Shown: one piece after another, positions 31,194 to 50,180 of the stretch
Layout: every line of letters begins with the position of its first letter
Position numbering within the stretch: the first letter of the stretch is position 1
Origin: an uncultured Planktomarina sp.
GTDB lineage: Bacteria > Pseudomonadota > Alphaproteobacteria > Rhodobacterales > Rhodobacteraceae
Direction: 5' to 3'
Assembly (NCBI GenBank): GCA_943788425.1
Contig: CALSQF010000006.1
Location: 248,001 to 312,000 of the forward strand
DNA length: 64,000 bases
Made by a program: the position numbers and the translations under genes
The notes under the pieces: generated by a model
What the model saw: the letters and a program-made list of their open reading frames with translations, nothing else
The model's database searches: none
What the model was told of the DNA's origin: nothing

Positions 31194-31209
31194 GTTCTAT
31201 ACTCTCCCT

Positions 31210-31365: not shown

Positions 31366-31392
31366 TTTCTTCTCCTGAAAATATGTACTGAC

Positions 31393-34778: not shown

Positions 34779-35769
34779 AGACCACTTCTAAACTAGCGCG
34801 AGGCGCGGCTTTTTTTCCGCGCATATCCATGTCTGTTGCGGGTACCAATTGGTAATCGCCACCCGTATCTTTGGCGTCAAACAGGCTCAAAAGACCATCT
34901 TGATCCAGAGGAGTTGGGCGCACGGGCGGCGCAAGGCCAACGGCCTCTCCCAACTGGCCAAACAAGCCACCCCATTGCGATTCAGCGGTTCCGACAATCT
35001 GATAGTTTGCCGATTTTTTACGCAGATCATCATCCTGGGGAATCGCTGCCAAAATCGGGATATCGACGGCTTTTGCAAAGGCCGCGGCTTCACCGCTGCC
35101 ATCATCCTTGTTGATAACCAACCCAGCGACACCGACGTTTCCGCCAAGTTTGCGGAAATATTCAACCGCTGAGCAAACGTTATTGGCCACGTAAAGAGAT
35201 TGCAGGTCATTGGATGCCACCAGGATGACCTTTTGTGCCATATCGCGGGCGATGGGCAGGCCGAATCCGCCACAGACAACGTCGCCCAAGAAATCGAGTA
35301 GAACATAGTCGAAGTCCCAATCGTGGAACCCCAATTTTTCCAGTAATTCGAATCCGTGAATAATCCCTCGGCCGCCGCATCCGCGCCCAACTTCTGGGCC
35401 GCCGAGTTCCATGGCAAACACGCCGCCACGTTTGAAGCACACGTCGCCAATTTTCACTTCTTCACCGGCAATCTTCTTTTGGCCGGAGGTTTCAATGATC
35501 GTAGGACAGGCCTTACCGCCGAAGAGCAGGGATGTTGTGTCTGATTTCGGATCGCATCCAATCAGCAATACCCGCTTGCCTTGCTCGGCCATCATATGGC
35601 TCAAATTGGCGAGGGTGAAAGATTTGCCGATGCCGCCTTTTCCGTAGATGGCGATAATTTGAGTTTTGCTAGTAGGTTCGCCCTGAGGCACCTCAAGAGA
35701 GATATCTTCATGGGCCTCATCTCGTAAACGCTGATCGAAATTCTTTAGATTTGGCACTTCATCTTTCAC
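34765..35769 (-). CDS. bchX: Chlorophyllide a reductase iron protein BchX
   Basis: The 334-residue NifH-like ATPase that feeds electrons to BchYZ. The P-loop is [15 protein letters not shown]; cluster cysteines are in [14 protein letters not shown] and [13 protein letters not shown]. The start is taken as GTG 35769, which forms a GTGA overlap with the bchC stop, has a GGGAG ribosome site 8 bp upstream, and gives the usual length. An in-frame ATG at 35805 would overlap bchC by 40 bp. Confidence 0.95.
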
Positions 35770-36707
35770 GACGGTTTCTCCCAATTGAGCATCATTTTCA
35801 AACATGACGAATCCTGAAAGGCTGATTGATAGGCCTCTGGCGCATCGGCTGCTGATGATGAATGCGTGATCAACCCGCCGAGGCTCAGAGCGCCGCTCTC
35901 AACCAATGCACGCGTTGCGGTTAGGTCATCGCGGTCCCATTCTGCGGTCACGCGAAATTTGGCTTCTTTCATAAAGGCTGGTGGAAAGGCAAAGCTTATA
36001 GGGTCGGTGTAAAAGCCAGCCAGGACAATCTCGCCACCTTTGGACAGGCGTCCAATCAATTGAGCCAGGACATCAGTGGAACCGGACGCATCATAGATAG
36101 ATTTGTAATCTTTTCTTGGATCATCTTCTGGTGCCACGACCTTATAGCCCTTGGCGCCCATGCGGCGGGCAGGGTCAATTTCCCAAACTGTTGGTGGCGG
36201 TGCGCCAGCGGCGACGGTGAGGCGGGCCAATAACCGCCCTAGGACCCCGTGACCTATGATTAAGTCTGGTACGGATTTTCCAGGTCCAGCCATAGCGTGC
36301 CGGGCAGTGGCAGCTAGGGCCAATAAAGCCCCTTCGGCGCCCATAGCCCCGTCCAATTTTGTAACGCGATCTTCATTGCTGACCAGATAACGTGCGGCAC
36401 CGCCAAAAAGTCCGAAAGCGCCATCATAGCAGTTGGCGCCCGGCACAAAGACCGTATCCCCGGCTTTAAAGGCGCTGGATTGCGGCGCTTCAACCACTTC
36501 TCCAGTTGCCTCATATCCTGGCACAAGGGGATATCCCATGCCTGGGAAAGGTGGCATTTGCCCGGACCAAAACAGTTTTTCAGTTCCTGTGGAGATGCCG
36601 GAATGCTTAATTTGCACAACCAAATCTCTCGCCTGTGGCGCAGCCACAGTGAGCGTATCGAGACGGATGTCTCTGGGCCCATTTAAGACGACAGCAGTTG
36701 TCTGCAC
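35766..36707 (-). CDS. bchC: Bacteriochlorophyllide dehydrogenase BchC
   Basis: A 313-residue medium-chain alcohol dehydrogenase that oxidises the 3-hydroxyethyl group to 3-acetyl. Typical stretches are [20 protein letters not shown] near the N-terminus and [17 protein letters not shown] in the cofactor fold. GTG 36707 is chosen: it has AGGGAG 7 bp upstream and begins at the conserved [13 protein letters not shown] codons at 36743 and 36731 would extend it without ribosome-site support. It heads the bchCXYZ-puf superoperon, behind two PpsR sites. Confidence 0.94.
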
Positions 36708-36767
36708 AATAAAACTCCCTTTGGATTTCATGACGGGGCACATGCCAGTCTGAAATTTCTCATATAC

Positions 36768-36785
36768 TGTACTTTAAAACTGACA
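36768..36785. promoter_or_regulatory. PpsR operator, proximal bchC site
   Basis: TGTACTTTAAAACTGACA, exact TGT-N12-ACA, 61 bp upstream of the bchC GTG. It is paired with the site at 36794-36811 with centres 26 bp apart, the tandem spacing typical for cooperative PpsR/CrtJ tetramers. Confidence 0.9.
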
Positions 36786-36793
36786 CATTTAAC

Positions 36794-36811
36794 TGTCAAC
36801 TAATATTGACA
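36794..36811. promoter_or_regulatory. PpsR operator, distal bchC site
   Basis: TGTCAACTAATATTGACA, exact TGT-N12-ACA. It ends 2 bp before the last base of the upstream crtF gene (stop at 36813), so the whole crtF-bchC spacer is occupied by operator sequence. Confidence 0.9.
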
Positions 36812-36812
36812 A

Positions 36813-37940
36813 CTATGGAAAGGCAAGCTTGCGGGCCTCTAAACAGCGCGTGACGAAGGGGCGAGCCGGTTTCGGAGTCTGGGTCACCTCAAAGCCGGCT
36901 TGACGACAAAGCGACGAAATTTCCTGAATTGAGCGCGTTTTTCCGGTGCGCATCGCCAATGTATACAGGGCGAAATAGACATCTCCCGCCGGTTCTGGGT
37001 GAGCGCCCCCTGACATGGGTTCAGAGATTAACAGTCGCCCAGCCAAAGGCAGGCTGTCCCAACATTTTGCCAAAAGCATCGCCACCGTCTCATCGGTGTG
37101 GTCGTACAAAACTCGGATCAGGCTGATAGAATCGGCCCCTTTGGGAATTGGGTCAGTTTTGAATGATCCACAGGTGATCTGCGCTCGGTCGTCCATGCCG
37201 GCGGCTGCGAATCTCGGTGCGGCGGTAGGTGCGACCTGCTCCAGGTCAAACAACATCAATTTCACATGTGGATGCGCCTGGCCGACCTGCTCCAGAAAAG
37301 CGCCAGAGCCGCCGCCCACATCAAGCAAGGTACCCACGGTGGAGAGATCAAGGCTGCGCATCGTATCTTCTGCGACCAATTCTTGGCTGCGAGCCATCAA
37401 GTCAGAATAGGTTTTGGCCGTTTGCGGTTCCATCTCGCCACCAAAAACATAAGGCCAAAAAACGGCCAGCTCTGTCTGCGTATCGCCTCTGAAAAAGGCC
37501 GCTGGATCACGCAGATCGCGATAGAGGACATCGTGGTGCCGGATCATATCACTTAGGCCTGGAACTCCGAGTAAGGCTGCGCTGGTCTTGCTGAGCGCAA
37601 AGCGCCCGCCGCGCTGCGAGCGCAGCAGTTTTAAGGCTACAGCCGCCCGCAGCAAAATCGTCATCCGATCCTGTGGCACCATGCAAGTCTCAGCGAGCTC
37701 TTCAAGTGTTTTCGGGCTCTTTAACAGGAGGTTGAAGATGTCGAATTGCACCAGTGCCATGAGCACTTGTGAATGGCAAAACCCCGCTAAAAGATTAAAC
37801 AAGGCAGCGCCTTCACGTCGCACCATCCGACGAGTCAAGAAGTTTTTCGCTGCCCATTTTTGGAATCTGCGCGAAGCAATCAGACGGTTTGACCAGCTGG
37901 AAATCCCATACCACGCGCCAGCCTTACGCTCACCGCGCAT
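36813..37940 (-). CDS. crtF: Demethylspheroidene O-methyltransferase CrtF
   Basis: A 375-residue SAM-dependent O-methyltransferase that makes the methoxy group of spheroidene. The SAM motif is LLDVGGGSGAFLEQVG, and the dimerisation and winged-helix part precedes it. ATG 37940 overlaps the crtE stop by one base (TGATG); a GTG three bases upstream is also possible. It is cotranscribed with crtE. Confidence 0.95.
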   Translation of the reverse strand: MRGERKAGAWYGISSWSNRLIASRRFQKWAAKNFLTRRMVRREGAALFNLLAGFCHSQVLMALVQFDIFNLLLKSPKTLEELAETCMVPQDRMTILLRAAVALKLLRSQRGGRFALSKTSAALLGVPGLSDMIRHHDVLYRDLRDPAAFFRGDTQTELAVFWPYVFGGEMEPQTAKTYSDLMARSQELVAEDTMRSLDLSTVGTLLDVGGGSGAFLEQVGQAHPHVKLMLFDLEQVAPTAAPRFAAAGMDDRAQITCGSFKTDPIPKGADSISLIRVLYDHTDETVAMLLAKCWDSLPLAGRLLISEPMSGGAHPEPAGDVYFALYTLAMRTGKTRSIQEISSLCRQAGFEVTQTPKPARPFVTRCLEARKLAFP

Positions 37941-38827
37941 CACTCACCAGGGTGAAGATTTGAGTGTTTGTTGCGCCATTTCACTGGCGTTAGCATCTCA
38001 GCCTGAGCATTGACCATTTTGGCCAACATGGCTTCGCCGGGGCAGCATGGTATCGAAGAGATTGCGCCGCCTAAAATATTTTTCATATGTGAAATCGCAC
38101 CTTCGATGCCATATTCTGCAACCGCGTTTGGCCGGCCATGCAGGTCGTCTTGCCCGGCGGGCTTGCCCAATTCGGCCTCACTATAAAGAGCATCGCGTAG
38201 GTCATCGGCCACCTGAAAGGCTTCGCCAATGCGCGATCCCAGCTCATCCCATTGCCCGCCATCTTGGCCAGCTGCAATTGCACCCATTTGTGTTGCTGCA
38301 ACGAAAAGGGCGCCAGTTTTTGCTCTGTGATAGGCACGCAAATCTATTTTCTGTTCACTTTCCCAGCCCTGTCCCGCGCATATGCCATTGGGCATTCCGG
38401 TCTGCTCGGCCAGGATGCTCATCAACCCAATCGCGCGCTCTAGATCTATGGACGCGTGGCGCGTGAGAATTTGAAAAGCCATGACAATGAGACTGTCGCC
38501 AGCCAAAATCGCAAGTGGCTCGCCATAGGCGCGATGGAGGGAGGGTTTGCCCCGCCGGGTTTCGGCATTGTCAAAGCATGGCAGATCATCATGCACCAAA
38601 GAGGCGCAGTGGATACATTCTAAGGCAGCTGCGGCCGCATTGGTCAATTCGGGACGATCATCGCCGCAGGCGGTGGCGACACTCATCAAGATGGTTGGGC
38701 GAATACGCGCGCCACCGGGGCTGACCGCATAATGCAATGCAGAGGCAAGTTTAGCAGGGGACGGGGCGGTTTGCCCCAAGTTTACGGCGTCAGATATCGC
38801 CGTTTCAATTCGGGTTTTAAACCCCAT
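37940..38827 (-). CDS. crtE: Geranylgeranyl diphosphate synthase CrtE
   Basis: A 295-residue trans-prenyltransferase that supplies GGPP for carotenoids and for BchG. The first Asp-rich motif is HDDLPCFDNAETRRGKPS, the second FQVADDLRDAL. The start at 38827 (MGFKTRIETA) matches the family; an in-frame ATG at 38854 adds nine residues. It is divergent from crtD over a spacer with two PpsR palindromes. Confidence 0.96.
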   Translation of the reverse strand: MGFKTRIETAISDAVNLGQTAPSPAKLASALHYAVSPGGARIRPTILMSVATACGDDRPELTNAAAAALECIHCASLVHDDLPCFDNAETRRGKPSLHRAYGEPLAILAGDSLIVMAFQILTRHASIDLERAIGLMSILAEQTGMPNGICAGQGWESEQKIDLRAYHRAKTGALFVAATQMGAIAAGQDGGQWDELGSRIGEAFQVADDLRDALYSEAELGKPAGQDDLHGRPNAVAEYGIEGAISHMKNILGGAISSIPCCPGEAMLAKMVNAQAEMLTPVKWRNKHSNLHPGE

Positions 38828-38861
38828 GATCTCGTCCTCACATTGAAAAGCCATTCAAAAA

Positions 38862-38879
38862 TGTAATCTCTTGATGACA
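38862..38879. promoter_or_regulatory. PpsR operator between crtE and crtD (crtE-proximal)
   Basis: TGTAATCTCTTGATGACA, exact TGT-N12-ACA, 34 bp upstream of the crtE start. Tandem with 38887-38904, centres 25 bp apart. The pair can repress both divergent carotenoid operons. Confidence 0.9.
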
Positions 38880-38886
38880 TATCTAA

Positions 38887-38904
38887 TGTAAACTAGAATG
38901 GACA
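38887..38904. promoter_or_regulatory. PpsR operator between crtE and crtD (crtD-proximal)
   Basis: TGTAAACTAGAATGGACA, exact TGT-N12-ACA, 46 bp upstream of the crtD ATG. Confidence 0.9.
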
Positions 38905-38950
38905 CATCAAGCGGATCTGTCAATCGAAAGCTGTGAAGGAGGCCTGTGAG

Positions 38951-40426
38951 ATGAAGCATGTCGCCATTATCGGAGCTGGCATCGGTGGCCTCGCGGCCGC
39001 AATGCGACTGGCCCATGGCGGGGTAAAGGTGACAGTTCTGGAAGGTCAGGCGACTCCTGGCGGCAAAATGCGCAGCTTGCCCTCCGCCCCAGGTATGATC
39101 GATGCTGGCCCAACTGTTTTAACGATGAAACCGGTTTTTGAGGTGCTATTTCGTGACGTTGGCTGCCAATTGGCAGATTACGCCACATTGACACAAGAAG
39201 ACATCTTGGCCCGACATTTTTGGCGTGATGGCACACGCTTGGATCTCATGCGCGATCCGCAAGCCAGTTTGGAAAATGTGCGGCACAGTTTTGGGGCGGC
39301 GGCGGCGGCTGAGTTTCACAGATTTTCGCGCGACGCCCAGCACCTGTTTGAGCAGCTCAATGATCCGATGATGCAAGCCGCAACGCCGGCTTTGTGGAGG
39401 ATGATCCCGGTGATTTTGAAATCTCCTGGAACCTTTATGAGGATGGATCCTCTGCGGTCTCTGGCCCAGTCCCTTGCGCATCGGTTTTCCGATCCGCGAC
39501 TGGCACAACTCTTTGCTCGTTATGCTACTTATATCGGTGGCCTGCCGCAGGCCTCGCCTGCGCTACTTGCTTTGATCTGGCATGTTGAAAGCCTGGGCGT
39601 TTGGCATGTGAAAGGAGGTATGAGACAATTGGCCTTTGGCATGGAGGCCTGCGCTCAGAATTTGGGCGCTGAATTTCATTATGAAAGTTTTGTCACAAAA
39701 TTTGAGCGCACAGAAAGCGGTAGATATCAACTTGAATGCAATGGCCGTTTCATTTCCTGTGATGCGGTTTTGTTCAACGGAGATCCAAATGCCCTGACCC
39801 GCGGTTATTTGGGGCCAGAGGCCAGCACCGCCACCACCACCCAGGCTACGATGCCGCGTAGTCTTTCGGCCCATGTCATGAGCTTTGCGGCACAAGTCGA
39901 AGGCCTGCCGCTTGCCGCGCATAACGTGCTTTTCGCAGCAGATCCAGATCAGGAGTATGGGCCATTGGCGCAGGGCACCCCCCAACATGATCCTACGCTC
40001 TACATCTGTGCCCAGGATAGGTTTGGATCCCAAACGCCCATCGGGCAAGAGCGATTTGAAATTATCCTAAACCATCCGCCCAGCGCTCAACCGGTGGTCC
40101 CCTCACAGAAGGTTCGCGAACAATGTCAGACAATATTTCTAGATCACCTCACGCGTCACGGGCTGAGATTCACACCGCGCCCACCGGCCGACACGCTGAC
40201 GATGGCCGAGGATTTCGCGCAGATGTTTCCGGGCTCGGACGGATCCCTTTACGGGCGATCCCCGCATGGCATGATGGCGGCCTTCGCGCGCCCAACCGCC
40301 AGAACCAAAACCAAGGGGCTCTATCTGGTGGGCGGAGGAGCGCATCCGGGGGCGGGGGTGCCGATGGCGACACTCTCCGCCAAGCATGCGGCCGCGGCGA
40401 TCTTGAACGACCTCACTTTGACATAG
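38951..40426 (+). CDS. crtD: Methoxyneurosporene/hydroxyneurosporene desaturase CrtD
   Basis: A 491-residue FAD-dependent carotenoid 3,4-desaturase of the CrtI/CrtD family. The N-terminal motif is AIIGAGIGGLAAAMRLAHGG; the C-terminal family signature is GLYLVGGGAHPGAGVPMA. ATG 38951 has AAGGAGG 8 bp upstream; the GTG at 38933 is an alternative without support. crtC starts 2 bp after its stop or overlaps its end. Confidence 0.95.
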   Translation: MKHVAIIGAGIGGLAAAMRLAHGGVKVTVLEGQATPGGKMRSLPSAPGMIDAGPTVLTMKPVFEVLFRDVGCQLADYATLTQEDILARHFWRDGTRLDLMRDPQASLENVRHSFGAAAAAEFHRFSRDAQHLFEQLNDPMMQAATPALWRMIPVILKSPGTFMRMDPLRSLAQSLAHRFSDPRLAQLFARYATYIGGLPQASPALLALIWHVESLGVWHVKGGMRQLAFGMEACAQNLGAEFHYESFVTKFERTESGRYQLECNGRFISCDAVLFNGDPNALTRGYLGPEASTATTTQATMPRSLSAHVMSFAAQVEGLPLAAHNVLFAADPDQEYGPLAQGTPQHDPTLYICAQDRFGSQTPIGQERFEIILNHPPSAQPVVPSQKVREQCQTIFLDHLTRHGLRFTPRPPADTLTMAEDFAQMFPGSDGSLYGRSPHGMMAAFARPTARTKTKGLYLVGGGAHPGAGVPMATLSAKHAAAAILNDLTLT

Positions 40427-40428
40427 AG

Positions 40429-41337
40429 GTGCCTCCCGGTGGGTATGCTTGGTGGTATATTGATGGGGTCAGTGATGATGGTCAGCGTGCGGTTTCTGTA
40501 ATCGGCTTTATTGGTTCGGTCTTCTCGCCGTGGTATGCTTGGTCGGGCCGTGGGGATCCCGGCAATCATTGCTGCATCAATGTTGCCACCTATGGTCGAG
40601 GTGGCCGCTTCGCCATGACGGACCGCGGACGCACAGCGTTGCGGCAAACTTCAGATACGCTCACCGTAGGTCCGTCGTCTCTGCATTGGACCGGAACGCA
40701 ATTGTTGATTGATGTGGATGAGATATCTTCATTGCCTATCATTTCCAGAATGCGGGGACGGATCACCTTAACCCCGCCGGCCCTTACAGACATTGAATTG
40801 CCGCTTACAGCTGATGGTGCCCATGTTTGGCGTCCCTTCGCTCCAATTGCCCGTATTTCCGTGGATCTAGAGGCGAAGGGCTGGCAGTTTGATGGGCATG
40901 GTTATTTTGACAGTAATTTTGGCACACGAGCTCTCGAGGAAGATTTCAGCTCTTGGACTTGGGCCCGCTATCCGACCCGATCCGGGGCAACTTGCTTTTA
41001 TGATGCCGAGCGTCGCGATGGCACGCGCTTAAATGCAGCCATCGGCTTTACCCCTGAAGGACAGGCCGCACAGGTTCCAGCCCCCGGATCTGCGTGCTTC
41101 AACCGAACGCTCTGGGCACTGCCTCGCACCACCCGTGCAGATCCGGGTTATCGACCAAAACAGATCAAATCCATGCTTGATGCGCCGTTTTATTCACGGT
41201 CTGTCGTCGAAACCATGTTGCACGGTGAGCGAGTGCAGGGGGTGCATGAATCGCTTGATCTCAACCGCTTTGCATCTCCGGTCGTCAAATCTATGCTGGC
41301 GTGCCGTGTGCCGCGTCGGGCGCGTTGGAAATTCTAA
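40429..41337 (+). CDS. crtC: Hydroxyneurosporene synthase (carotenoid 1,2-hydratase) CrtC
   Basis: A 302-residue enzyme that adds water to the C1,2 double bond of neurosporene. Typical stretches are FIGSVFSPWYAWSGRGDP, NHCCINVATYG, MTDRGRTALRQ and WRPFAPI. The start is uncertain. GTG 40429, two bases after the crtD TAG, is the only nearby standard start, but it lacks a good ribosome site. The in-frame residues before it (PHFDIEV) look family-like, and the next start upstream is ATG 40123, 300 bp inside crtD. Its stop directly abuts that of crtB. Confidence 0.88.
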   Translation: MPPGGYAWWYIDGVSDDGQRAVSVIGFIGSVFSPWYAWSGRGDPGNHCCINVATYGRGGRFAMTDRGRTALRQTSDTLTVGPSSLHWTGTQLLIDVDEISSLPIISRMRGRITLTPPALTDIELPLTADGAHVWRPFAPIARISVDLEAKGWQFDGHGYFDSNFGTRALEEDFSSWTWARYPTRSGATCFYDAERRDGTRLNAAIGFTPEGQAAQVPAPGSACFNRTLWALPRTTRADPGYRPKQIKSMLDAPFYSRSVVETMLHGERVQGVHESLDLNRFASPVVKSMLACRVPRRARWKF

Positions 41338-42378
41338 TTATTTTGCAAGCATAGCGCCGTTGGTCTGGCTACGTTCTTTGCGCTTGAGTTCGGCCATGGC
41401 GGCCATAAATGCCCCAGTATGCCCTTGGCCCCATGACATCGCATGGCGTTCATTGATGGCCACGGCATCAACCAAAAACTGAACCTCTGGCAGTGGCCGC
41501 GCGTAGAGCACGGGGGAGGTTGGCATGACCAAACCTGCGGTTGTTCGGAGCGATGATTTTGCCAGAAGCGCTAATTTTTGCGCTTTGCTTGTCCGACCGC
41601 GGTGGGTGATGGAATCATAATTATTGCGGGTCACAGCCTGGCCAATGGCGGCATAAATATAACGCGCGGCATAGATGCCAGTGCGGGCATTCAGCGGTAA
41701 GGCAGCAACGCCGGCTTCAGATCTCACATAGAGCGCATGGGCCTCGGATAGAAGCTTCTTCACCATTCGGCGCAGCTCTGGCGTTGCCTGAGTCGCGCTT
41801 AAAACTTGCTGTGGATCAAGTCCTTCAGCATGGATCCACTCAAATGGCAGGTAAATACGTCCCGCGCGGGCATCCTCGCCCACATCCCGTGCGATATTTG
41901 TCAGCTGCATCGCTACACCCAAATCGCAGGCCCGTGCCAAAGCGTCCGCATCGCGCACCCGCATCAAGACACACATCATCGCACCCACAGCAGAGGCCAC
42001 GCGGGCGCAATAGCCGCGTAGGTCAGACGGGCTGGCATAGCGGCGCTCCATTGCGTCCCATGCCAGACCCTCTAACAAAGCTTCGGGCAGAGCAGCCGGC
42101 ATTTCGAAATCCTCAACCACTGAAGCGAAGGCTCGGTCCTCTGGGGCATTGCGTGGCCGTCCCGCATAGACCAGTGCCAACCGCTCCTGCAATTCAATCA
42201 CGGCGTGGGTCTTGTTCTGCCCTTCATCCACCTCGTCATCGGCCAATCGGCAAAAGGCATAGAGCGCCAAGGCAGGATCTCGAACAGAGGCGGGCAACAA
42301 TTTCGATGCGGCATGAAAAGAGAGTGACCCGGTACGGATCACATTGCGGCAATGGTGCAGATCATCAGGGCGAATCAT
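41338..42378 (-). CDS. crtB: Phytoene synthase CrtB
   Basis: A 346-residue enzyme that joins two GGPP to 15-cis-phytoene. Substrate Asp motifs are RLADDEVDEGQ and QLTNIARDVGEDARAGR, followed by IYLPFEW. It overlaps crtI by ATGA and abuts crtC tail-to-tail with no spacer. Confidence 0.97.
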   Translation of the reverse strand: MIRPDDLHHCRNVIRTGSLSFHAASKLLPASVRDPALALYAFCRLADDEVDEGQNKTHAVIELQERLALVYAGRPRNAPEDRAFASVVEDFEMPAALPEALLEGLAWDAMERRYASPSDLRGYCARVASAVGAMMCVLMRVRDADALARACDLGVAMQLTNIARDVGEDARAGRIYLPFEWIHAEGLDPQQVLSATQATPELRRMVKKLLSEAHALYVRSEAGVAALPLNARTGIYAARYIYAAIGQAVTRNNYDSITHRGRTSKAQKLALLAKSSLRTTAGLVMPTSPVLYARPLPEVQFLVDAVAINERHAMSWGQGHTGAFMAAMAELKRKERSQTNGAMLAK

Positions 42379-43919
42379 TCAGCTGCCATCCGTGCTTTGC
42401 CCTGTGCAACCGGAGCATCGGCCACAAGTTTCGACAAGACTTCAGCGCTGGAGATGACGCCGGGCAACCCGGCGCCGGGATGGGTTCCTGCGCCGACAAG
42501 ATAGAGGCCGCGAGCCTCTTCGCTCACATTATGGGGTCGGAACCAAGCGCTTTGTAGGATGCGCGGCTCAATCGAAAACCCCGCGCCATGGGGGCTGAGG
42601 TAGCGATCCTTAAAGGTTTCGGGGGTGAAAATTGTTTCAGTTGAGATGCAGGTCTCGAACCCTGGCATCAATTTCTCCACCTCAGCTGCAACTTTGGCGC
42701 GATATGTTGGCATTTCCTTTTGCCAATCGACTTTTTTCTTCCAGCCCAAATGTGGAACGGGTGACAATACATAGAATGTATCATCGCCAGCGGGCGCAAC
42801 GCTTGGGTCGGTTACAGATGGCCGATGGATATAAAGGCTCATATCGTCGGACAAGCGACCTTTGATAAAGATGTCGTGTAACAGGCCCTTGTAGCGAGGT
42901 CCGTTGGCAATTGTATGGTGCCCGACATCGGTCCATTTCCCGGCGGTTCCCCGAGTTCCAAAGTACCAAACGAACAAGCCCATCGACCAGCGCTTGCGTG
43001 CAAGTTTCGGTGTCGTCCAACGTCGACGCCTGTGGTTGCGCAAGAGGTGATCATAAGTGTGACCGGCATCGGCATTGCTGACAATCAATGGTGCATCGAA
43101 TCTTTGGCCGTCGGTGAGAGTAACCGCTTTCGCCGCCCCGTTTTCAACAAGAATTTCATCTGCTACGGCCTCTTGGTGGATCTGCCCACCCTGGGCACGT
43201 ACAACTGTGGCCATGGCATTAGCAATCTGTTGCACCCCGCCCATCGCGTAATGCACGCCGTAAGTTTTTTCCAAATGCGCCACCAAGGCATAGATGGATG
43301 TGACATGCATCGGATCGCCTCCAATGAACAAGGGATGAAAGGAGAGGGCCATTCTGAGCCGCTCGTCTTTGACCCGCCAGGCAGCCAGGGCATAAATTGA
43401 ACGATCTGCCCGCAACATGGCAAATGTCGGCAAGACTTTTAGGGTTTCCCAAAGCCGGTGCATGGGTTCTGCCACCATGCCTTCATAGCCAACCACATAG
43501 CGTTTTTGCGAGTCTTTCAAAAAGCGTTTGTAACCGGACAGATCCGCAGGATTCAGCCTCTGGACTTCCGATTGCATCGCCTCGTCATCGCCGCTGGCAC
43601 GAAAATATGAGCCATCTGGCCAGCGAATCTCATAAAATGGTTCGAGGGGCCGTAGATCCACATCTGCGTGAAAATCTCGACCACAGGCGGCCCATAGGGA
43701 CTCAAACACCTTCGGCATGGTCACAATTGTTGGCCCTAAATCAAATCGGTGACCGTCTTGTGTGATTGAGGAGCCACGGCCGCCCACCCGATCGAGCTTA
43801 TCCAATACAGTGACCGCATAGCCCTTTGCGCCTAGCCGCATCGCTGCCGCCAACCCACCCAGGCCGGCGCCAATCACAACCGCGCGGTTGTCTTGGGTGC
43901 TGTGATCAGGGTTGGTCAT
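42375..43919 (-). CDS. crtI: Phytoene desaturase CrtI
   Basis: A 514-residue FAD-dependent desaturase that converts phytoene to neurosporene in this lineage. The dinucleotide motif is AVVIGAGLGGLAAAMRLGAK, and the C-terminal signature is LYLVGAGTHPGAGLPGVI. The start MTNPDHST at 43919 gives the usual length; ATG codons up to 44015 would add up to 32 residues but run through both PpsR sites. It is divergent from crtA. Confidence 0.96.
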   Translation of the reverse strand: MTNPDHSTQDNRAVVIGAGLGGLAAAMRLGAKGYAVTVLDKLDRVGGRGSSITQDGHRFDLGPTIVTMPKVFESLWAACGRDFHADVDLRPLEPFYEIRWPDGSYFRASGDDEAMQSEVQRLNPADLSGYKRFLKDSQKRYVVGYEGMVAEPMHRLWETLKVLPTFAMLRADRSIYALAAWRVKDERLRMALSFHPLFIGGDPMHVTSIYALVAHLEKTYGVHYAMGGVQQIANAMATVVRAQGGQIHQEAVADEILVENGAAKAVTLTDGQRFDAPLIVSNADAGHTYDHLLRNHRRRRWTTPKLARKRWSMGLFVWYFGTRGTAGKWTDVGHHTIANGPRYKGLLHDIFIKGRLSDDMSLYIHRPSVTDPSVAPAGDDTFYVLSPVPHLGWKKKVDWQKEMPTYRAKVAAEVEKLMPGFETCISTETIFTPETFKDRYLSPHGAGFSIEPRILQSAWFRPHNVSEEARGLYLVGAGTHPGAGLPGVISSAEVLSKLVADAPVAQGKARMAAE

Positions 43920-43938
43920 AAATTTTTCGCCCGCCATC

Positions 43939-43956
43939 TGTCTATAATTATTTACA
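43939..43956. promoter_or_regulatory. PpsR operator, crtI side
   Basis: TGTCTATAATTATTTACA, exact TGT-N12-ACA, 19 bp upstream of the crtI ATG. Its centre is 56 bp from the site at 43995-44012. Its TATAAT core could also be a -10 element for crtI or crtA. Confidence 0.8.
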
Positions 43957-43994
43957 ACCATAGGTCTTATGAGCTTCCCAATGCAAGGATAATG

Positions 43995-44012
43995 TGTCAA
44001 CATAATCTGACA
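43995..44012. promoter_or_regulatory. PpsR operator, crtA side
   Basis: TGTCAACATAATCTGACA, exact TGT-N12-ACA, 21 bp before the crtA ATG. It overlaps an in-frame upstream ATG (43992), which argues against that codon as the crtA start. Confidence 0.88.
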
Positions 44013-44033
44013 CATTTACCAGGTGCACAGGGC

Positions 44034-44738
44034 ATGACGCAAATCGTCACAATCAGTTTCTTTCGTTTTGGGTCCGTTCGCTCCCGACTTTGGGCCTTCG
44101 CCATGATGGGTTTGGCCAGAGGGCAAATGTCGCGCATTCCGGGTATTGGATTTTGGAAATTATTTGGATCAGGCTCCGATGAGGGCTTTACCCCCAAACC
44201 CAATGTGTCTGTCTACGCCGTGCTGGCAACTTGGCCGGATCGGCAAACCGCGGAGCACAGCTTGCAAGAAAGTACTATCTTCGCGCGCTACCGTCAGCAG
44301 GCCATCGAACATTGGACCGTGTTTATGGAAGCGGAGACAGTACGGGGCAAATGGTCGGGCGCAACGCCATTTTCAACGACGAATCAAAGTCAGAATGGCC
44401 CGCTTGCGGTGATGACCCGCGCCACGTTGCGACCGCGAAACCTCGTCCGATTTTGGCGGCGTGTTCCCAATATTTCGCAGGTGATCGGCCAAGATCCGAA
44501 TGTTGTTTTCAAGATCGGTATTGGTGAAGTGCCTTGGCTCCAACAGGTGACCTTCTCCATATGGCCCAGTATCGAACATATGAACAATTTTGCGCGCAAG
44601 GGGCATCATGCACGGGCCATTCAAGCGGTGCGTATGGAGGGATGGTTCAAAGAAGAACTCTATGCCCGATTTACCCTTATCGCGGACACCGGCACTTGGG
44701 AGGGCGACTCCCCTCTAAAACAACTGGATATCTCATGA
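44034..44738 (+). CDS. crtA: Spheroidene monooxygenase CrtA
   Basis: A 234-residue haem-dependent oxygenase that converts spheroidene to spheroidenone using O2. Family stretches: VTISFFRFGSVRSRLWAFAM at the start, and RATLRPRNLVRFWRRVPNIS in the middle. ATG 44034 is chosen; the frame extends upstream to 43893, but those starts lie in the operator or in crtI. Its stop overlaps bchI (ATGA), so it heads the crtA-bchIDO operon. Confidence 0.94.
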   Translation: MTQIVTISFFRFGSVRSRLWAFAMMGLARGQMSRIPGIGFWKLFGSGSDEGFTPKPNVSVYAVLATWPDRQTAEHSLQESTIFARYRQQAIEHWTVFMEAETVRGKWSGATPFSTTNQSQNGPLAVMTRATLRPRNLVRFWRRVPNISQVIGQDPNVVFKIGIGEVPWLQQVTFSIWPSIEHMNNFARKGHHARAIQAVRMEGWFKEELYARFTLIADTGTWEGDSPLKQLDIS

Positions 44739-45742
44739 AGCAGCCTTTTCCTTTCTCAGCCATTGTCGGACAGGATGATATGAAACTGGCCATGGTGCTA
44801 ACCGCCATTGATCCGTCGATTGCGGGGGTGCTCGTCTTTGGGGAACGTGGCACCGGCAAATCCACTGCGGTGCGGGCTTTGGCTGGGTTGTTGCCGCCGA
44901 TCATCGCTGTGAAAGCCTGTCCGGTGAACAGTGCTGACGTTAAAGACTGCCCTGCATGGTGCGATGTGTCCGATGCCAGTGTCCAAAGCATTGCCACGCC
45001 CGTTGTGGATCTTCCTTTGGGCGCGTCAGAGGATCGTGTCACCGGGGCGCTCGATATCGAAAAAGCCTTAACCAAGGGTGAGAAAGCCTTTCAGCCTGGC
45101 CTATTTGCGCAGGCGAACCGGGGATATCTTTATATAGATGAGGTGAATCTTCTTGAAGATCACATTGTGGATCTTTTGCTGGACGTGGCGCAATCGGGTG
45201 AAAATGTCGTGGAACGCGAAGGACTTTCCATCCGCCACGCTGCGCGTTTTGTACTGGTTGGATCTGGCAACCCGGAAGAAGGTGAATTGCGACCACAATT
45301 GATGGATCGCTTTGGACTGTCGGTCGATGTGCTATCCTCCACAGATATTGATGAAAGAATTGAAGTCATAAAGCGGCGCGACGCCTATGAGAACGATCAT
45401 GAGGCCTTTATCGCGCATTGGCAGTCAGAAGATGCCACCTTGCGGGCGCGCATTGTTGCCGCGCGCGCAGCTTTGGCAGATTTGCAAACTCCCGATAGCG
45501 CCCTGCGCCGCGTCGCTGAGCTTTGCATCGCTCTGGGTTCGGATGGGTTGCGTGGGGAGTTAACACTCTTGAAAGCTGCCCGGGCCTTTGCAGCATTTGC
45601 TGGTGATGCGGCCGTGACTGACGATCATATCCGTAAGACCGCTGTGCTGGCCCTGCGTCATAGATTGCGCCGGGATCCTTTGGACGACTCTGGATCAAGC
45701 AGTCGCGTTGCGCGGAAAATCTCAGAAATTCTAGGCGAATGA
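44735..45742 (+). CDS. bchI: Magnesium chelatase ATPase subunit BchI
   Basis: A 335-residue AAA+ ATPase that drives Mg insertion with BchD and BchH. Walker A is GERGTGKSTAVRALAG, Walker B is GYLYIDEVNLLEDHIVD, and the sensor/Arg-finger region is LRPQLMDRFGL. The start at 44735 (MKQPFPFSAIVGQDD) follows crtA by an ATGA overlap; the frame is open farther upstream only because of crtA. bchD starts 2 bp after its stop. Confidence 0.97.
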   Translation: MKQPFPFSAIVGQDDMKLAMVLTAIDPSIAGVLVFGERGTGKSTAVRALAGLLPPIIAVKACPVNSADVKDCPAWCDVSDASVQSIATPVVDLPLGASEDRVTGALDIEKALTKGEKAFQPGLFAQANRGYLYIDEVNLLEDHIVDLLLDVAQSGENVVEREGLSIRHAARFVLVGSGNPEEGELRPQLMDRFGLSVDVLSSTDIDERIEVIKRRDAYENDHEAFIAHWQSEDATLRARIVAARAALADLQTPDSALRRVAELCIALGSDGLRGELTLLKAARAFAAFAGDAAVTDDHIRKTAVLALRHRLRRDPLDDSGSSSRVARKISEILGE

Positions 45743-45743
45743 T

Positions 45744-47396
45744 ATGACCCGTTGGGAGAGGGCGCAGCTGGCGATTACGCTCCTGGCCATAGATCCCCAA
45801 AGGCTTGGGGGTTTGGTCATTCGCGCCCGCGCCGGCCCAGCTCAGGCCGTAATGCTTGCCGCTGTTCAATCGCTCGATATCCCCACGGTTAAGTTGCAGC
45901 ACCACATGACGCTTGAGGTTCTCAACGGCGATATTGATTTGACCGCCTCCTTGGCGTCACGCCGATTGGTGACACGCAAAAGTATCTTTGACTGTCCGTC
46001 GTCCTTGTTCGTTCTTCCTATGGCTGAGCGCTGCCCACCCCAATTTTCCGCGCGGATTTGTCAAGCTTTGGAGGCGGGTCTTGGGCATGGTTTGATCGCC
46101 TTAGATGAAGGTGCGGAGGAGGGGGATTGCCTTCCAGCTGCGCTGACAGATCGCCTGGCCTTTCATGTCATTCTTGAGGACGTGGCCTTGCAGGATTTAT
46201 CATCCATCACATTGCCCAGCTCATTGGAAAAAATCCGCGCTGAGGTCCTTGGCGTGACATTGCCCGCTGAATTGAGGGAGGCGGCCGTTATCTTGGCCGC
46301 ATCACTTGGCATTTCAAGCCTGCGTGCGCCGCTGCTTCTGGTATATGCAGCGCAGGCTCATGCTTCCCTTCACGCCCGCGATGCGGTGACGGAAGAAGAT
46401 TTAAAAGTGGCTGTGATGCTGGTCTACCCACATCGAGCCACGCGCTTGCCGCAGGATCCGGAACCCCAAGTGCAACCTGATGAGGCAAACCCACCTGAGG
46501 CGCCCCAAGATCCAACGCAAGCTATACCGCCCAATGATCTAATGATCGAAGCTGTGAAGGCTGTCCTGCCGGATGGTGTGTTGGCTCAGTTGCAAAGCAC
46601 GGTAAAGCAACCCGCGTCTGGCTCAGGATCTGGCACACGCCGCAAAGGAAATCATCGCGGGCGCCCCCTTCCGGCGAGGCTCGGCCCAAAAAACAGTGGA
46701 GCCCGGGTTGACCTCGTGGCCACCTTAAGGGCCGCAATTCCTTGGCAAACTCTGCGCAAGAGCTCAAACCCTAAGGCCATAGGGCCGATTTTTAAGGCAT
46801 CTGATTTGCGTCATAAACGCTATGAAATTCAATCAGATCGCCTGCTTATTTTCACAGTAGATGCGTCAGGCTCCGCGGCTGTTGCGCGTTTGGCTGAGGC
46901 TAAAGGCGCGGTCGAACTGCTGCTTGGCGAGGCCTATGCCCGAAGGGATCATGTTGCACTTTACGCATTCCGCGGAGCAGAATCCGAGGCATTATTGCCG
47001 CCCACAAGATCACTGGTGCAAACCAAAAAGCGGCTGGCCGCGCTCCCCGGTGGAGGGGCCACACCTTTGGCTGCTGGATTGGCGGCGGCGTTTAACCTTG
47101 CGTTGCAAGAACGGCGCAATGGTCTGACTCCAACTTTGGTTTTGCTCACCGATGGGCGTGCCAATGTTGCCCTTGATGGATCCAATGACCGGGTCCAAGC
47201 AGCGATGGACGCATTGATGTTGGCTGGAAAAATTGCTGAGGCGCAGATCCCGGCCTTGGTGATCGACACTACAATCCGGCCAGAAAAAACGCTGCAAGCC
47301 CTGGCTGGCAAAATGCGGGCCAACTACATTGCTTTGCCCCGCTCAGATGCAAAATCGGTGTCCGGTGCCGTCGCTTCAGCTTTGGCGCAATCGTGA
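45744..47396 (+). CDS. bchD: Magnesium chelatase subunit BchD
   Basis: A 550-residue subunit with a degenerate AAA+ domain (residues 1-230), an acidic Pro-rich linker (about 240-270, PEPQVQPDEANPPEAPQDP), and a C-terminal von Willebrand A domain. The metal-ion site is complete: DASGS, the Thr in GGATPLAAG, and the Asp in LTDGRANV. It platforms the BchI ring and contacts BchH. Overlaps bchO by ATGA. Confidence 0.96.
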   Translation: MTRWERAQLAITLLAIDPQRLGGLVIRARAGPAQAVMLAAVQSLDIPTVKLQHHMTLEVLNGDIDLTASLASRRLVTRKSIFDCPSSLFVLPMAERCPPQFSARICQALEAGLGHGLIALDEGAEEGDCLPAALTDRLAFHVILEDVALQDLSSITLPSSLEKIRAEVLGVTLPAELREAAVILAASLGISSLRAPLLLVYAAQAHASLHARDAVTEEDLKVAVMLVYPHRATRLPQDPEPQVQPDEANPPEAPQDPTQAIPPNDLMIEAVKAVLPDGVLAQLQSTVKQPASGSGSGTRRKGNHRGRPLPARLGPKNSGARVDLVATLRAAIPWQTLRKSSNPKAIGPIFKASDLRHKRYEIQSDRLLIFTVDASGSAAVARLAEAKGAVELLLGEAYARRDHVALYAFRGAESEALLPPTRSLVQTKKRLAALPGGGATPLAAGLAAAFNLALQERRNGLTPTLVLLTDGRANVALDGSNDRVQAAMDALMLAGKIAEAQIPALVIDTTIRPEKTLQALAGKMRANYIALPRSDAKSVSGAVASALAQS

Positions 47397-48277
47397 TGAA
47401 CTGGCAGCAATCAAAGCATTATTGGCCCTTTGCGCAATATTCTCAGTTTACGCTGCAAAAACCGCATCTGTGGCATATTCAAGATATCGGAACTGGCCCG
47501 GTGATATTGCTTATTCATGGAGCTGGCAGCACAACCCACAGTTGGCAACGTCTTGTGCCGTTTTTAACAGACAAATACCGGGTAATTATGGTGGATTTGC
47601 CCGGGCAGGGTTTTACACGGCTGGGCGCGCAGCAACGTTGCGGGTTGGATCATATGGCCGAAGACTTAACGAGCTGTTTGACCGCGCTTAATATCGAGCC
47701 CAAGGTCATTATTGGCCACTCTGCCGGCGCAGCAATTGCCCTGCGCCTTGCGGAGCTTGCGACGTTTGGCTGCAAAGTTATCGGGATCAATGCTGCGCTT
47801 GATCACTTCCGCGGTGTGGCAGGAGTTTTGTTTCCACTCTTAGCAAAGGCCATCGCGAACTTGCCGTTCTCAAGCAGTGTCCTGAGTAAAATTGCCGGTC
47901 ATGAAGACACAGTCGATCGTATTCTCAAAGGCACGGGTTCAGATCTCGTTGAGGCGGATTTAAAATTCTACAAAGAGTTGATGCGTAGCCGCTCTCATAT
48001 TGGCGCCACCATGCAAATGATGGCCCAATGGGATCTTGAACCGCTCTTGGCGCGGCTGCCGAACCTGCAAACTGAGACACATTTGATCGCCTCTTCCAAT
48101 GATCTTGCTGTGCCCTGCGCAACATCTCAAAGGGCTGCAGCCTTGCTGCCGAATGCAGATTACCGCGTTCTGTCCGATCTTGGGCATCTGGCGCATGAAG
48201 AGGACGCTGCCACCATTGCCGCTTGCATAGTTCCCTTGTTGGATTTCGGCAGCGCCTCAGTAAATAAAGCTGGCTGA
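47393..48277 (+). CDS. bchO: BchO, alpha/beta-hydrolase fold putative Mg chelatase accessory protein
   Basis: A 294-residue alpha/beta-hydrolase. The oxyanion-hole motif is LIHGAGSTTHSW, the nucleophile elbow is IGHSAGAAIALRL, and a catalytic His lies in LGHLAHEEDAA. It always accompanies bchID and is thought to aid Mg chelation, but its reaction is unknown. It is the last gene of the crtA-bchIDO operon. Confidence 0.94.
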   Translation: MMNWQQSKHYWPFAQYSQFTLQKPHLWHIQDIGTGPVILLIHGAGSTTHSWQRLVPFLTDKYRVIMVDLPGQGFTRLGAQQRCGLDHMAEDLTSCLTALNIEPKVIIGHSAGAAIALRLAELATFGCKVIGINAALDHFRGVAGVLFPLLAKAIANLPFSSSVLSKIAGHEDTVDRILKGTGSDLVEADLKFYKELMRSRSHIGATMQMMAQWDLEPLLARLPNLQTETHLIASSNDLAVPCATSQRAAALLPNADYRVLSDLGHLAHEEDAATIAACIVPLLDFGSASVNKAG

Positions 48278-48385
48278 GACGGGCAAGCCCACAGCTGGCC
48301 ACCGGTATCAACCTGAAGTTGCTAATGTCATCCAAACCCCAAAAAACCTTGTATGAAGGGAGATTTTTGCATAGGATTTCCGCCC

Positions 48386-48715
48386 ATGCGAAACATTGAT
48401 GTGACAGATCTAGATTTTGAACAGTTGGAGCCTCAAATCTTTGAGGCTGCGCGGTTAATGGAGATGCTGTCGCATCCTGCAAGGCTTCGGATCCTTTGCA
48501 CCATGCTGGGCGGGGAGAAAAGTGTTCAGGAATTGGCGATCAATGCCAGCCTGTCACAGCCGGCCATGTCGCACCATTTGCGCAAGCTGCGCGATTCGGA
48601 GTTGGTGAATACCCGGCGCGACAAACAAACCATATACTATTCACTGAAAGGCGAGCAGGTGGCTGCGGTGTTGGAAGTCTTGCATCGCTTATACTGCAAC
48701 GAGCTTATTCTTTAA
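48386..48715 (+). CDS. ArsR/SmtB-family repressor, BigR/SqrR-like
   Basis: A 109-residue winged-helix regulator. The recognition region is ELAINASLSQPAMSHHLRKL and the wing is RRDKQTIYYSLKG. Cys38 (ARLRILCTM) and Cys104 (RLYCNE) are 66 residues apart. That is the same spacing as Cys41 and Cys107 of Rhodobacter SqrR, a sulfide-responsive repressor that forms an intramolecular polysulfide link. Metal-site residues of classical ArsR proteins are not evident. It lies 108 bp downstream of bchO in the same direction, with an AGGA ribosome site before ATG 48386; an ATG at 48353 is an alternative. It overlaps the hemY-type gene tail-to-tail by 11 bp. Sulfide sensing here is inference from the cysteine pair. 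Confidence 0.85.
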   Translation: MRNIDVTDLDFEQLEPQIFEAARLMEMLSHPARLRILCTMLGGEKSVQELAINASLSQPAMSHHLRKLRDSELVNTRRDKQTIYYSLKGEQVAAVLEVLHRLYCNELIL

Positions 48716-50180
48716 GCGGCGCACGATCGGTAAATTCTTTTGCGGCTTTCTGATCTGGTTGGCCTAGATCCTCCGGCTTCAAGAGCGGCGGGAGATTGGT
48801 AGCGCCCTGAGCCATATGACCGACGATCAAAGGTAGCATATCGGGGCTTACTGCCTCCGACATTGGTGGGCGTTTCCAAGCAATGCTGTCGATGGCTTCA
48901 CAATTGAGACAGACAGGCTCCCAATCATGATCTACATGTCCACAATTTTCACAAATCCATTGTGGGTCGCGCTGGGCGGAAATGGCTTGGGTCAAGAGCT
49001 GGCGTACAGATTGGTCATCGGCGCCGTCGCCGCGCTCGATGGCGGCGAGAATGGTCAGCGCGCGCATGGTTGGATCCGTCTTTGCAAGTTCTCCAAGCGC
49101 CCGCCGGGCCGCCTCAAAATCAGCCAGGGCCACATAAAGTTCAGCCATTAGCATTTTTGTTTCCGGGTGCGAGTCTGTGCCCTTGGTGAATTGTTCAAAT
49201 CGCTTGAGGCGGGCCGTGGGCTCCTCATCTGGGGCAAGGGCGGCAAAACCGGAAGCGAGTTCTGGATGCGGCGCCAATTGCCAGGCTGCGCGCAGAATGC
49301 GGCTCGCTTGCTTCCCATTGTTTTGTTCCCGATGCCCTTCGGCGGCCATTAGGGCTGCGGGCACCAAGCTGGGCGCAAGCTTGTTGGCTTCAACCGCGTA
49401 GCTTTGTGCCTTTTGCAACTTGCCTTCAGCACGCAAATCACGGGCTTGGGAGAGGGCAAAAACCGCATCGCGGCGTTTGTGCACATCTTTTGGCAAAGTC
49501 CCATGTTTCAACTTGGCCGTCAGGGTTGCCCGTACCCCATGCCAATCTTTTTGGCTCGCTTGCAGCTTGAGTAAGACATCCTGCGTTTCGCCATGCTTCG
49601 GCTTGAGCGCAAAGGCATGTTCCGCCAATTTCAGCGCCAATTCTGTGTCGCCATCCTGCAAATGTTGTTGCAGCAAACCATAGGTGCCAACAAAACGGGT
49701 TTTATGGTCTTTTAGCAATTTTTTGTAGGTTGCCTTAGCGGTCTGTCGATCCCCATTGGCTACGGCGGCCTGTGCCACGATCAAATTGGTCAGGTCTGGG
49801 CGGTTCAGTAGGCGATCGGCTTTTTTTGCCTTCGCCATTGCGTCGCGGCCTTCACCACTGGCCAGAGCCATTAACCCATCGGAAAGCGCCTCAAATCCGC
49901 GGCGCTCACGATTGCGATCGAAATAGCGCGACAGCGCGGTTTCATCGCCATTGATGAACCGCAGAAGCGCAATCAATAAACCCAAGAGTTTGAGAAAAAG
50001 CCAAAGGCTTATCAGCAAACCCAGAACTAGTAGGGCAGCTTGCAGCGCACCGAAAGACAATTCAAAGCCAGAATATTGAATTGTGACGCCGCCTTTCGCT
50101 TCCATCAACCGGCCCGCGCCAAAGCTGATCAGCATCACCATGGCCACAAAACTTAAGATTTTTATGAGGGACCAAAGCAT
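48705..50180 (-). CDS. HemY-type TPR membrane protein
   Basis: A 491-residue protein with two N-terminal membrane helices (about residues 5-22 and 42-70, LLVLGLLISLWLFLKLLGLL) and a long TPR-repeat domain; this is the HemY_N family. A Cys-rich tail has CENCGHVDHDWEPVCLNCE, a rubredoxin-like zinc knuckle. In this family the role in haem synthesis is indirect or structural; it is not protoporphyrinogen oxidase. It forms a hemD-mitofilin-like-hemY group typical of alphaproteobacteria and marks the PGC edge. Confidence 0.88.
   Translation of the reverse strand: MLWSLIKILSFVAMVMLISFGAGRLMEAKGGVTIQYSGFELSFGALQAALLVLGLLISLWLFLKLLGLLIALLRFINGDETALSRYFDRNRERRGFEALSDGLMALASGEGRDAMAKAKKADRLLNRPDLTNLIVAQAAVANGDRQTAKATYKKLLKDHKTRFVGTYGLLQQHLQDGDTELALKLAEHAFALKPKHGETQDVLLKLQASQKDWHGVRATLTAKLKHGTLPKDVHKRRDAVFALSQARDLRAEGKLQKAQSYAVEANKLAPSLVPAALMAAEGHREQNNGKQASRILRAAWQLAPHPELASGFAALAPDEEPTARLKRFEQFTKGTDSHPETKMLMAELYVALADFEAARRALGELAKTDPTMRALTILAAIERGDGADDQSVRQLLTQAISAQRDPQWICENCGHVDHDWEPVCLNCEAIDSIAWKRPPMSEAVSPDMLPLIVGHMAQGATNLPPLLKPEDLGQPDQKAAKEFTDRAPLKE

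What the first reader, a model, noticed from the sequence alone, without database searches (positions are those of the whole stretch)
48386..48715. SqrR/BigR-like sulfide-type repressor encoded at the edge of the photosynthesis cluster
The ArsR-family protein has Cys38 and Cys104 exactly 66 residues apart, the spacing of the two persulfide-sensing cysteines of Rhodobacter SqrR. SqrR is known there to repress sulfide-responsive and photosynthesis genes. Here the gene follows bchO directly. An aerobic phototroph with a reactive-sulfur sensor physically joined to its PGC would be an unexpected regulatory input.
Basis: partly seen in the sequence, partly recalled or inferred. Interest (0 to 1): 0.75.

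Follow-up and report, generated by a model that had tools for sequence, protein, structure and literature searches.

The report
Sulfur sensor split from its operon
A bacterial sulfur-stress sensor gene sits beside the photosynthesis genes most likely because that whole block of photosynthesis genes was inserted between the sensor and the sulfur-detoxification genes it controls, so it is probably an ordinary sulfur regulator and not a new switch for photosynthesis.

Summary
In detail: window 48386-48715 (+) encodes a 109-aa ArsR protein with Cys38 and Cys104, directly after bchO. The cysteines align without gaps on those of SqrR and HlyU and are conserved in relatives.

The interpretation mostly fails. 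The genome's closest SqrR relative is another gene (C1:1780-2070; 130 bits to SqrR against 65). This ArsR belongs to a separate clade whose members mostly lie near half-YeeE transporters and a Blh-type persulfide dioxygenase.

In this Planktomarina-like lineage the same sulfur operon (yeeE1-yeeE2-blh-DUF442-sulP) lies about 49.5 kb away, just beyond the left edge of the photosynthesis cluster (PGC). Sister genomes without a detected PGC have the same outer flanks with nothing, or one gene, between. The simplest reading is one PGC insertion between two divergent promoters.

An operator-like element (TTGTATAT-N10-TTATATA) occurs exactly once per genome, at yeeE1, in 8 of 10 genus genomes searched; none is in the window. 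arsR keeps about 55 bp of ancestral upstream sequence and is under purifying selection.

Most likely this is a persulfide-sensing repressor still acting in trans on its old operon. Its linkage to the PGC is insertion history. No binding or expression data exist.

The parts
48386..48715 (+). arsR: persulfide-type ArsR repressor, 109 aa
48497..48499 (+). codon of Cys38 (helix 2)
48695..48697 (+). codon of Cys104 (just after the last long helix)
48557..48595 (+). putative recognition helix (residues 58-70), nearly identical in empty-site orthologues
48331..48385 (+). about 55 bp upstream of arsR homologous to the arsR upstream region of G002 and G003, which lack a detected PGC (ancestral arsR promoter region); right PGC junction near 48330
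47393..48277 (+). bchO, last PGC gene on the right edge
45744..47396 (+). bchD
44735..45742 (+). bchI (longer ORF from 44534)
1..48330 (.). inserted block: PGC. Its left end (tspO, then a response regulator) begins left of the window, tspO at about genome C6:247081
48705..50180 (-). HemY-like TPR gene, convergent with arsR; shared right flank of empty and occupied sites

Best explanation
The gene is a BigR/SqrR-class (reactive-sulfur-sensing) ArsR repressor. Its ancestral target is the divergently transcribed persulfide-detoxification operon yeeE1-yeeE2-blh-DUF442-sulP. In the ancestor of the phototrophic clade of this lineage a photosynthesis gene cluster of about 49 kb became inserted between the arsR promoter and the yeeE1 promoter/operator. 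The inserted block runs from tspO to bchO. Both promoters survived on their own sides. The protein most likely still works in trans: as a dimer it binds the single operator over the yeeE1 promoter, and persulfides link Cys38 and Cys104 by a polysulfide bridge and release it. Shown here by sequence: the gene, the cysteine pair, the ancestral locus, occupied and empty sites, operator conservation, purifying selection. Inferred: DNA binding, persulfide chemistry, repression, insertion rather than loss. Its place beside bchO is not evidence that it regulates photosynthesis.
For: (a) Ancestral locus: in the 39-row clade of this ArsR (SH-aLRT 99), which excludes the SqrR, HlyU, BigR, YgaV and NolR references and the own-genome paralogue, 25 of 38 relatives have yeeE1 and/or blh in the DNA fetched around arsR (1.5 or 6 kb each side). 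Of 80 genome-contig loci 33 have both yeeE1 and yeeE2, yeeE1 on the strand opposite to arsR in all 33; 3, all of this lineage, have bch genes. (b) Same operon on the far side of the PGC: blh C6:245220-245963 (-), yeeE1 match C6:246502-246900 (-), arsR C6:296386 (+); start-to-start gap 49,467-49,506 bp in G000, G013, G014 and G019. (c) Empty sites with the same outer flanks: G002 and G003. (d) TTGTATAT-N10-TTATATA occurs exactly once per genome, just upstream of yeeE1, in 8 of 10 genomes searched; weight-matrix score 44.7 at the own yeeE1 (40.4 leave-one-out) against at best -1.7 in the 64-kb window. (e) arsR upstream -55 to -1 is homologous to that of G002/G003 (at most 5 of 500 shuffles as good in each of 12 comparisons); -110 to -56 is not (37-384 of 500). 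(f) dN/dS 0.08-0.29 over 15 phototroph pairs. (g) The six phototrophs form one side of a 100/100 split on HemY, nine genomes. (h) Published inference that three Planktomarina species got their PGC horizontally (PMC10675870, section 15 read). (i) HlyU, NolR, SqrR and BigR are the nearest solved folds.
Against: No binding, expression or redox data. The operator rests on conservation only; the looser palindrome TATAT-N12-ATATA is not enriched genome-wide (5 sites against 7 for the reversed control), and of three sites kept out of the matrix one (L032) scores only 7 (the others 40.6 and 27.1). Five one-mismatch copies of the element lie elsewhere in the 10 genomes (reversed control 3). G002 has a 303-bp spacer and G003 an aldolase-like gene between arsR and yeeE1, so PGC gain followed by loss in the sister clade is not excluded; no clear PGC remnant was found there, but the test is weak. 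G002 is only 74% complete. No tRNA or long repeats were seen at the junctions, so the insertion mechanism is unknown. In three Hoeflea loci looked at the gene sits by another operon, so targets can change. A different SqrR-like palindrome lies at the pufB start (see rival 1).
Confidence: 0.8

Rival explanations
1. One reading: an SqrR-like sulfide sensor recruited to the PGC, repressing photosynthesis promoters and releasing them on persulfide.
For: Dithiol pair and ArsR fold; adjacency to bchO in six of six genomes that carry both this arsR orthologue and bchO; purifying selection. A pattern of my own, ATNTTC-N7-GAANAT, occurs twice in the window against 0.07 expected (0 of 100 shuffles reach 2): at 13942, inside an ORF, and at 31364-31382, over the pufB start codon and ribosome-binding region, where it is identical in G013, G014 and G019. 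The pattern was chosen after the fact, and that stretch may be conserved for translation.
Against: Best score of the clade's own operator in the window is below the mean of shuffled maxima; palindrome absent with up to one mismatch; the exact element is found only at yeeE1; a closer SqrR relative exists elsewhere in the genome; no such linkage in 28 other bchO loci. ATTC-N8-GAAT (SqrR motif recalled from memory) occurs twice, 1.79 expected.
Confidence: 0.07
2. The PGC insertion rewired arsR: it is now the last gene of a crtA-bchIDO-arsR transcript, so light and oxygen control of bch genes sets the repressor level and through it persulfide detoxification in trans.
For: Same strand, 108-bp gap, no terminator-like site found in 48000-49000 (shuffles give 1.1 on average, so the absence is weak evidence); same order in six genomes.
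Against: arsR keeps its ancestral upstream 55 bp; the terminator and promoter scans are crude; no transcript data.
Confidence: 0.15
3. The PGC was already between arsR and yeeE1 in the common ancestor and was deleted in the G001-G003 clade; the site records loss of phototrophy, not gain.
For: G002 and G003 share the arsR-proximal 55 bp with phototrophs and have enlarged or occupied spacers; G001 has lost arsR and yeeE1.
Against: Needs a gain and a loss; empty arrangement in G004, G258 and Rhizobiales; of 24 spacer comparisons with PGC edges one is just over and three equal their 95% shuffle level; published inference of late horizontal gain.
Confidence: 0.2

Closest known systems
BigR / blh operon (Xylella, Agrobacterium)
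   Same: Regulator near a Blh-type sulfur dioxygenase (NF040641, dioxygenase half, 369 bits) and YeeE-type membrane proteins (that the bigR operon has them is recalled); same cysteine pair.
   Different: Scores 83 bits on NCBIfam BigR NF040642, below its cut-off of 155; Blh is split into two genes; the operon lies about 49.5 kb from its regulator.
SqrR of Rhodobacter capsulatus
   Same: Fold and Cys41/Cys107 equivalents align.
   Different: Only 65 bits; the own genome has a closer SqrR relative (130 bits); separate clade.
HlyU of Vibrio
   Same: Best sequence and fold match among solved structures; cysteines at 38 and 104 as in V. cholerae HlyU (passage).
   Different: Neighbourhood in relatives is sulfur detoxification, not hemolysin.
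PGC acquisition in Planktomarina (PMC10675870)
   Same: Horizontal gain of the PGC in three Planktomarina species has been inferred in print (section 15 read).
   Different: That section does not give the integration site (supplement not read); here it is placed between arsR and yeeE1, with empty sites.

Membership tests
Reactive-sulfur-sensing ArsR group (SSN cluster 4 of PMC10509353, passages) | ArsR winged-helix fold | tested here: met
   HTH_5 51 bits; model and Foldseek matches to HlyU, SqrR, BigR
Reactive-sulfur-sensing ArsR group (SSN cluster 4 of PMC10509353, passages) | Cysteine pair in helices 2 and 5 | tested here: met
   Cys38 in helix 31-42, Cys104 one residue after helix 90-103; conserved
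Reactive-sulfur-sensing ArsR group (SSN cluster 4 of PMC10509353, passages) | Co-localisation with sulfur transfer or transport genes | tested here: met
   25 of 38 clade relatives; in the own genome about 49.5 kb away across the PGC
Reactive-sulfur-sensing ArsR group (SSN cluster 4 of PMC10509353, passages) | Polysulfide bridge on persulfide and loss of DNA binding | not testable with these tools
   needs purified protein
SqrR orthologue | Closest relative of R. capsulatus SqrR in this genome | tested here: not met
   65 bits against 130 bits for C1:1780-2070
SqrR orthologue | Equivalent cysteines superpose | tested here: met
SqrR orthologue | Represses sqr | not tested
   presence of sqr in this genome was not searched
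BigR (NCBIfam NF040642) | Score above curated cut-off 155 | tested here: not met
   83.4 bits
BigR (NCBIfam NF040642) | Linked to blh and half-YeeE genes | tested here: met
   near arsR in relatives, here separated by the PGC
PGC regulator | Its clade's operator in PGC promoters | tested here: not met
   operator defined by conservation only; a different palindrome at pufB noted

The most novel reading that the evidence does not exclude
Insertion of the PGC turned a local sulfur repressor into the tail gene of the crtA-bchIDO transcript, so that the phototrophic state (light, oxygen, PpsR) now sets how much repressor the cell makes and thereby couples persulfide detoxification in trans to photosynthesis, the reverse of the proposed sulfur-to-photosynthesis input.
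Probability: 0.15. Interest if true: 0.6.

Novelty: new member of a known kind. Interest (0 to 1): 0.38.

Why it matters
It explains an eye-catching linkage without a new regulatory circuit. It also pins the integration site of this lineage's photosynthesis cluster to within tens of bases on the right side, with natural empty sites in sister genomes. That makes the gain of phototrophy in a marine lineage testable at the junction, and gives a case where an insertion of about 49 kb separates a repressor from its only visible operator while both are kept. It is a caution against reading function from position at a cluster edge.

Tried and rejected
Rejected: SqrR orthology; PGC-wide conservation of the linkage; the clade's operator in the PGC. 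The first operator pattern had the wrong spacing (N11) and gave no match; corrected. Search for PGC remnants in the G002/G003 spacers: 1 of 24 comparisons over and 3 equal to the 95% shuffle level. Junction repeats and tRNA: nothing useful. Presence of sqr was not searched. Sites G005, L027 and L032 were left out of the matrix. The tree of 124 short proteins is poorly resolved inside groups; in the HemY tree G002 is a partial sequence. The names hemD and gpsA for the right flank are recalled; the mitofilin-like match is below Pfam's cut-off. Literature: SqrR with photosynthesis gene cluster, and photosynthetic gene cluster with ArsR and bchO, gave 0 papers in a library of open-licence papers only; one search listed nothing relevant by title. 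PMC6052148 was only searched for words, with no hit for Planktomarina.

Full report
Observation. Window 48386-48715 (+) encodes a 109-aa ArsR protein with Cys38 and Cys104. HMMER aligns these without gaps on the conserved cysteines of SqrR 6o8k (64.8 bits) and HlyU 4k2e (78.6 bits, the best solved match). Both cysteines are invariant in alignments of 18 and 31 sequences and present in 77 of 80 loci of genome contigs; L213, L218 and L220 are the exceptions. AlphaFold2 (mean pLDDT 87, pTM 0.77) puts Cys38 in helix 31-42 and Cys104 one residue after helix 90-103. Foldseek ranks HlyU first, with NolR, SqrR and BigR close behind. Upstream is bchO (TIGR03056, 320 bits), then bchD, bchI and crtA. The 66-residue spacing is shared with HlyU, whose two cysteines one passage of PMC10509353 names C38 and C104 (another prints Cys101).

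It is not the closest SqrR relative of this genome. The own genome carries a second reactive-sulfur-type ArsR at C1:1780-2070, beside a 354-aa Sulf_transp protein. It matches R. capsulatus SqrR at 130 bits, twice the score of the window protein. On NCBIfam the window protein scores 83 bits on BigR NF040642, below the cut-off of 155. In a tree of 124 ArsR proteins it falls in a 39-row clade (SH-aLRT 99) that holds none of the SqrR, HlyU, BigR, YgaV or NolR references nor the own paralogue.

The ancestral neighbourhood is a persulfide-detoxification operon. Of the 38 relatives in that clade, 25 have yeeE1 and/or blh in the DNA fetched around arsR (1.5 or 6 kb each side). Five, all from this genus group, have bch genes there. 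Eight have neither. Among 80 named loci, 33 have both yeeE1 and yeeE2, with yeeE1 on the opposite strand to arsR in all 33. A blh-type match is present in 34, of which 7 rest only on a 25-27% match, and 3 have bch genes. The usual order is arsR, then divergently yeeE1-yeeE2-blh-DUF442-sulP. Blh matches the dioxygenase half of NF040641 (369 bits), and the DUF442-type protein (G003 copy) matches TIGR01244 sulfur transferase. yeeE1 matches Sulf_transp and yeeE2 DUF6691.

The same operon lies beyond the other end of the PGC. In the own genome blh is at C6:245220-245963 (-) and the yeeE1 match at C6:246502-246900 (-), while arsR is at C6:296386 (+). The left edge reads sulP, DUF442, blh, yeeE2, yeeE1, then tspO and a response regulator, then the window. 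G013, G014 and G019 have the same order. The start-to-start distance between arsR and yeeE1 is 49,492 bp in G000, 49,467 in G013, 49,506 in G014 and 49,473 in G019. G005 and G011 agree as far as their contigs reach.

Empty sites. G002 and G003 lack bchO above the cut-off (G002 is only 74% complete). There the same right flank (gpsA-like, hemD-like, mitofilin-like, hemY-like, arsR; the first two names recalled) and left flank (yeeE1-yeeE2-blh-DUF442) lie close together: 303 bp between arsR and yeeE1 in G002, and an aldolase-like gene between them in G003. G001 has lost arsR and yeeE1 and joins hemY to blh. Of 20 genomes in the genus search, 9 have an arsR orthologue (at least 69% identity), 9 have bchO above the cut-off, and 6 have both, always adjacent. 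Three (G007, G008, G010) have a distant bchO (40-43% identity) and no arsR orthologue. In the wider family 164 of 394 genomes have bchO. Of the 30 bchO loci fetched, only the two from this genus show such an ArsR within the DNA held, up to about 1.5 kb each side. In a 10-kb view of one more right edge, G388, two ArsR-type genes lie about 3 kb on, but the one that matched lacks the first cysteine. On HemY the six phototrophs form one side of a 100/100 split and G001-G003 the other (nine genomes). Insertion once on the phototroph stem is the simplest history, because G004, G258 and Rhizobiales also show the empty arrangement. A published study infers horizontal gain of the PGC in three Planktomarina species; I read its section 15, which gives no integration site.

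Operator. The arsR-yeeE1 spacers hold a conserved element, CTTGTATAT-N10-TTATATA (first base not fixed), close to a 22-bp palindrome. I searched 10 of the 20 genus genomes: the 9 with an arsR orthologue, and G001. The exact TTGTATAT-N10-TTATATA occurs once each in G000, G002, G003, G004, G005, G013, G014 and G019, always just upstream of yeeE1, and not in G001 or G011 (the left edge of G011 was not seen). Five one-mismatch sites lie elsewhere, and the reversed control gave three. A matrix from nine sites scores the own yeeE1 site 44.7 (40.4 with that site left out). Three sites kept out of it score 40.6 (G005), 27.1 (L027) and 7.0 (L032). The best place in the 64-kb window scores -1.7, below the mean shuffled maximum of 1.8. 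The palindrome with up to one mismatch is absent from the window (0 found, 0.31 expected). The looser palindrome is not enriched genome-wide (5 sites against 7 for the control). So the visible operator stayed with yeeE1 and none of this kind is seen in the PGC.

A result on the other side. The SqrR motif ATTC-N8-GAAT (recalled) occurs twice in the window, 1.79 expected. A looser pattern of my own, ATNTTC-N7-GAANAT, also occurs twice, against 0.07 expected. One copy lies inside an ORF. The other, 31364-31382, covers the pufB start codon and ribosome-binding region and is identical in G013, G014 and G019, as is nearly all of the surrounding 60 bases.

arsR itself kept its promoter region. The 55 bp before its start are homologous to those of G002/G003 (at most 5 of 500 shuffles as good in each of 12 comparisons) and the next 55 bp are not (37-384 of 500), which puts the right junction near 48330. 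The gene evolves under purifying selection (dN/dS 0.08-0.29 in 15 pairs). The putative recognition helix is nearly the same as in empty-site orthologues.

Mechanism (inferred). A dimer represses the yeeE1 promoter. Persulfides bridge Cys38 and Cys104, as reported for SqrR and HlyU (passages), and release it, raising persulfide oxidation and sulfur transport. Control now works in trans across about 49.5 kb. Photosynthesis control by this protein is possible but has only the weak lead above. An open alternative is that read-through from crtA-bchIDO changes the repressor supply: no terminator-like site was found between bchO and arsR, though shuffles give only 1.1 per kilobase, so this is weak.

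Limits. No binding, transcript or redox data. The operator is defined by conservation. Gain against loss of the PGC is not finally settled. The presence of sqr was not searched. Some relatives are fragmented metagenome assemblies.

Noticed in passing
genome C1:1780-2070 (-), locus L021: The closest SqrR relative of this genome (130 bits to 6o8k) sits beside a 354-aa Sulf_transp protein near a contig end.
   Followed up: partly
window 31364-31382: Palindrome ATTTTC-N7-GAAAAT over the pufB start codon and ribosome-binding region, identical in three relatives; could be translational or a regulator site.
   Followed up: partly
L154, L156, L161 (Hoeflea): In these Hoeflea loci the arsR orthologue (67-74% identity) is followed not by yeeE/blh but by a 946-aa molybdopterin oxidoreductase and an Fe-S protein, looking like a sulfite dehydrogenase pair (name recalled; only the L154 protein was scanned): the regulator can change operon.
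   Followed up: partly
L142 (G001): A genus relative has lost arsR, yeeE1, yeeE2 and the operator but keeps blh next to hemY.
   Followed up: partly
L128 4123-4836: In G003 a transaldolase/fructose-6-phosphate-aldolase-like gene sits at the same arsR-yeeE1 spot where phototrophs carry the PGC; the spot may accept insertions repeatedly.
   Followed up: no
L132, L134, L136 (G010, G008, G007): Genomes grouped in the same genus carry a quite different PGC (BchO 40-43% identity) with other right-edge neighbours and no arsR orthologue.
   Followed up: partly
G011 contigs C108 and C164: Two bchO copies above cut-off in one assembly with 5% contamination; perhaps mixed strains.
   Followed up: no
window 48705-48715: arsR and the convergent hemY-like gene overlap by 11 bp; the same overlap is seen in G003 (L128 3717-3727).
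   Followed up: no
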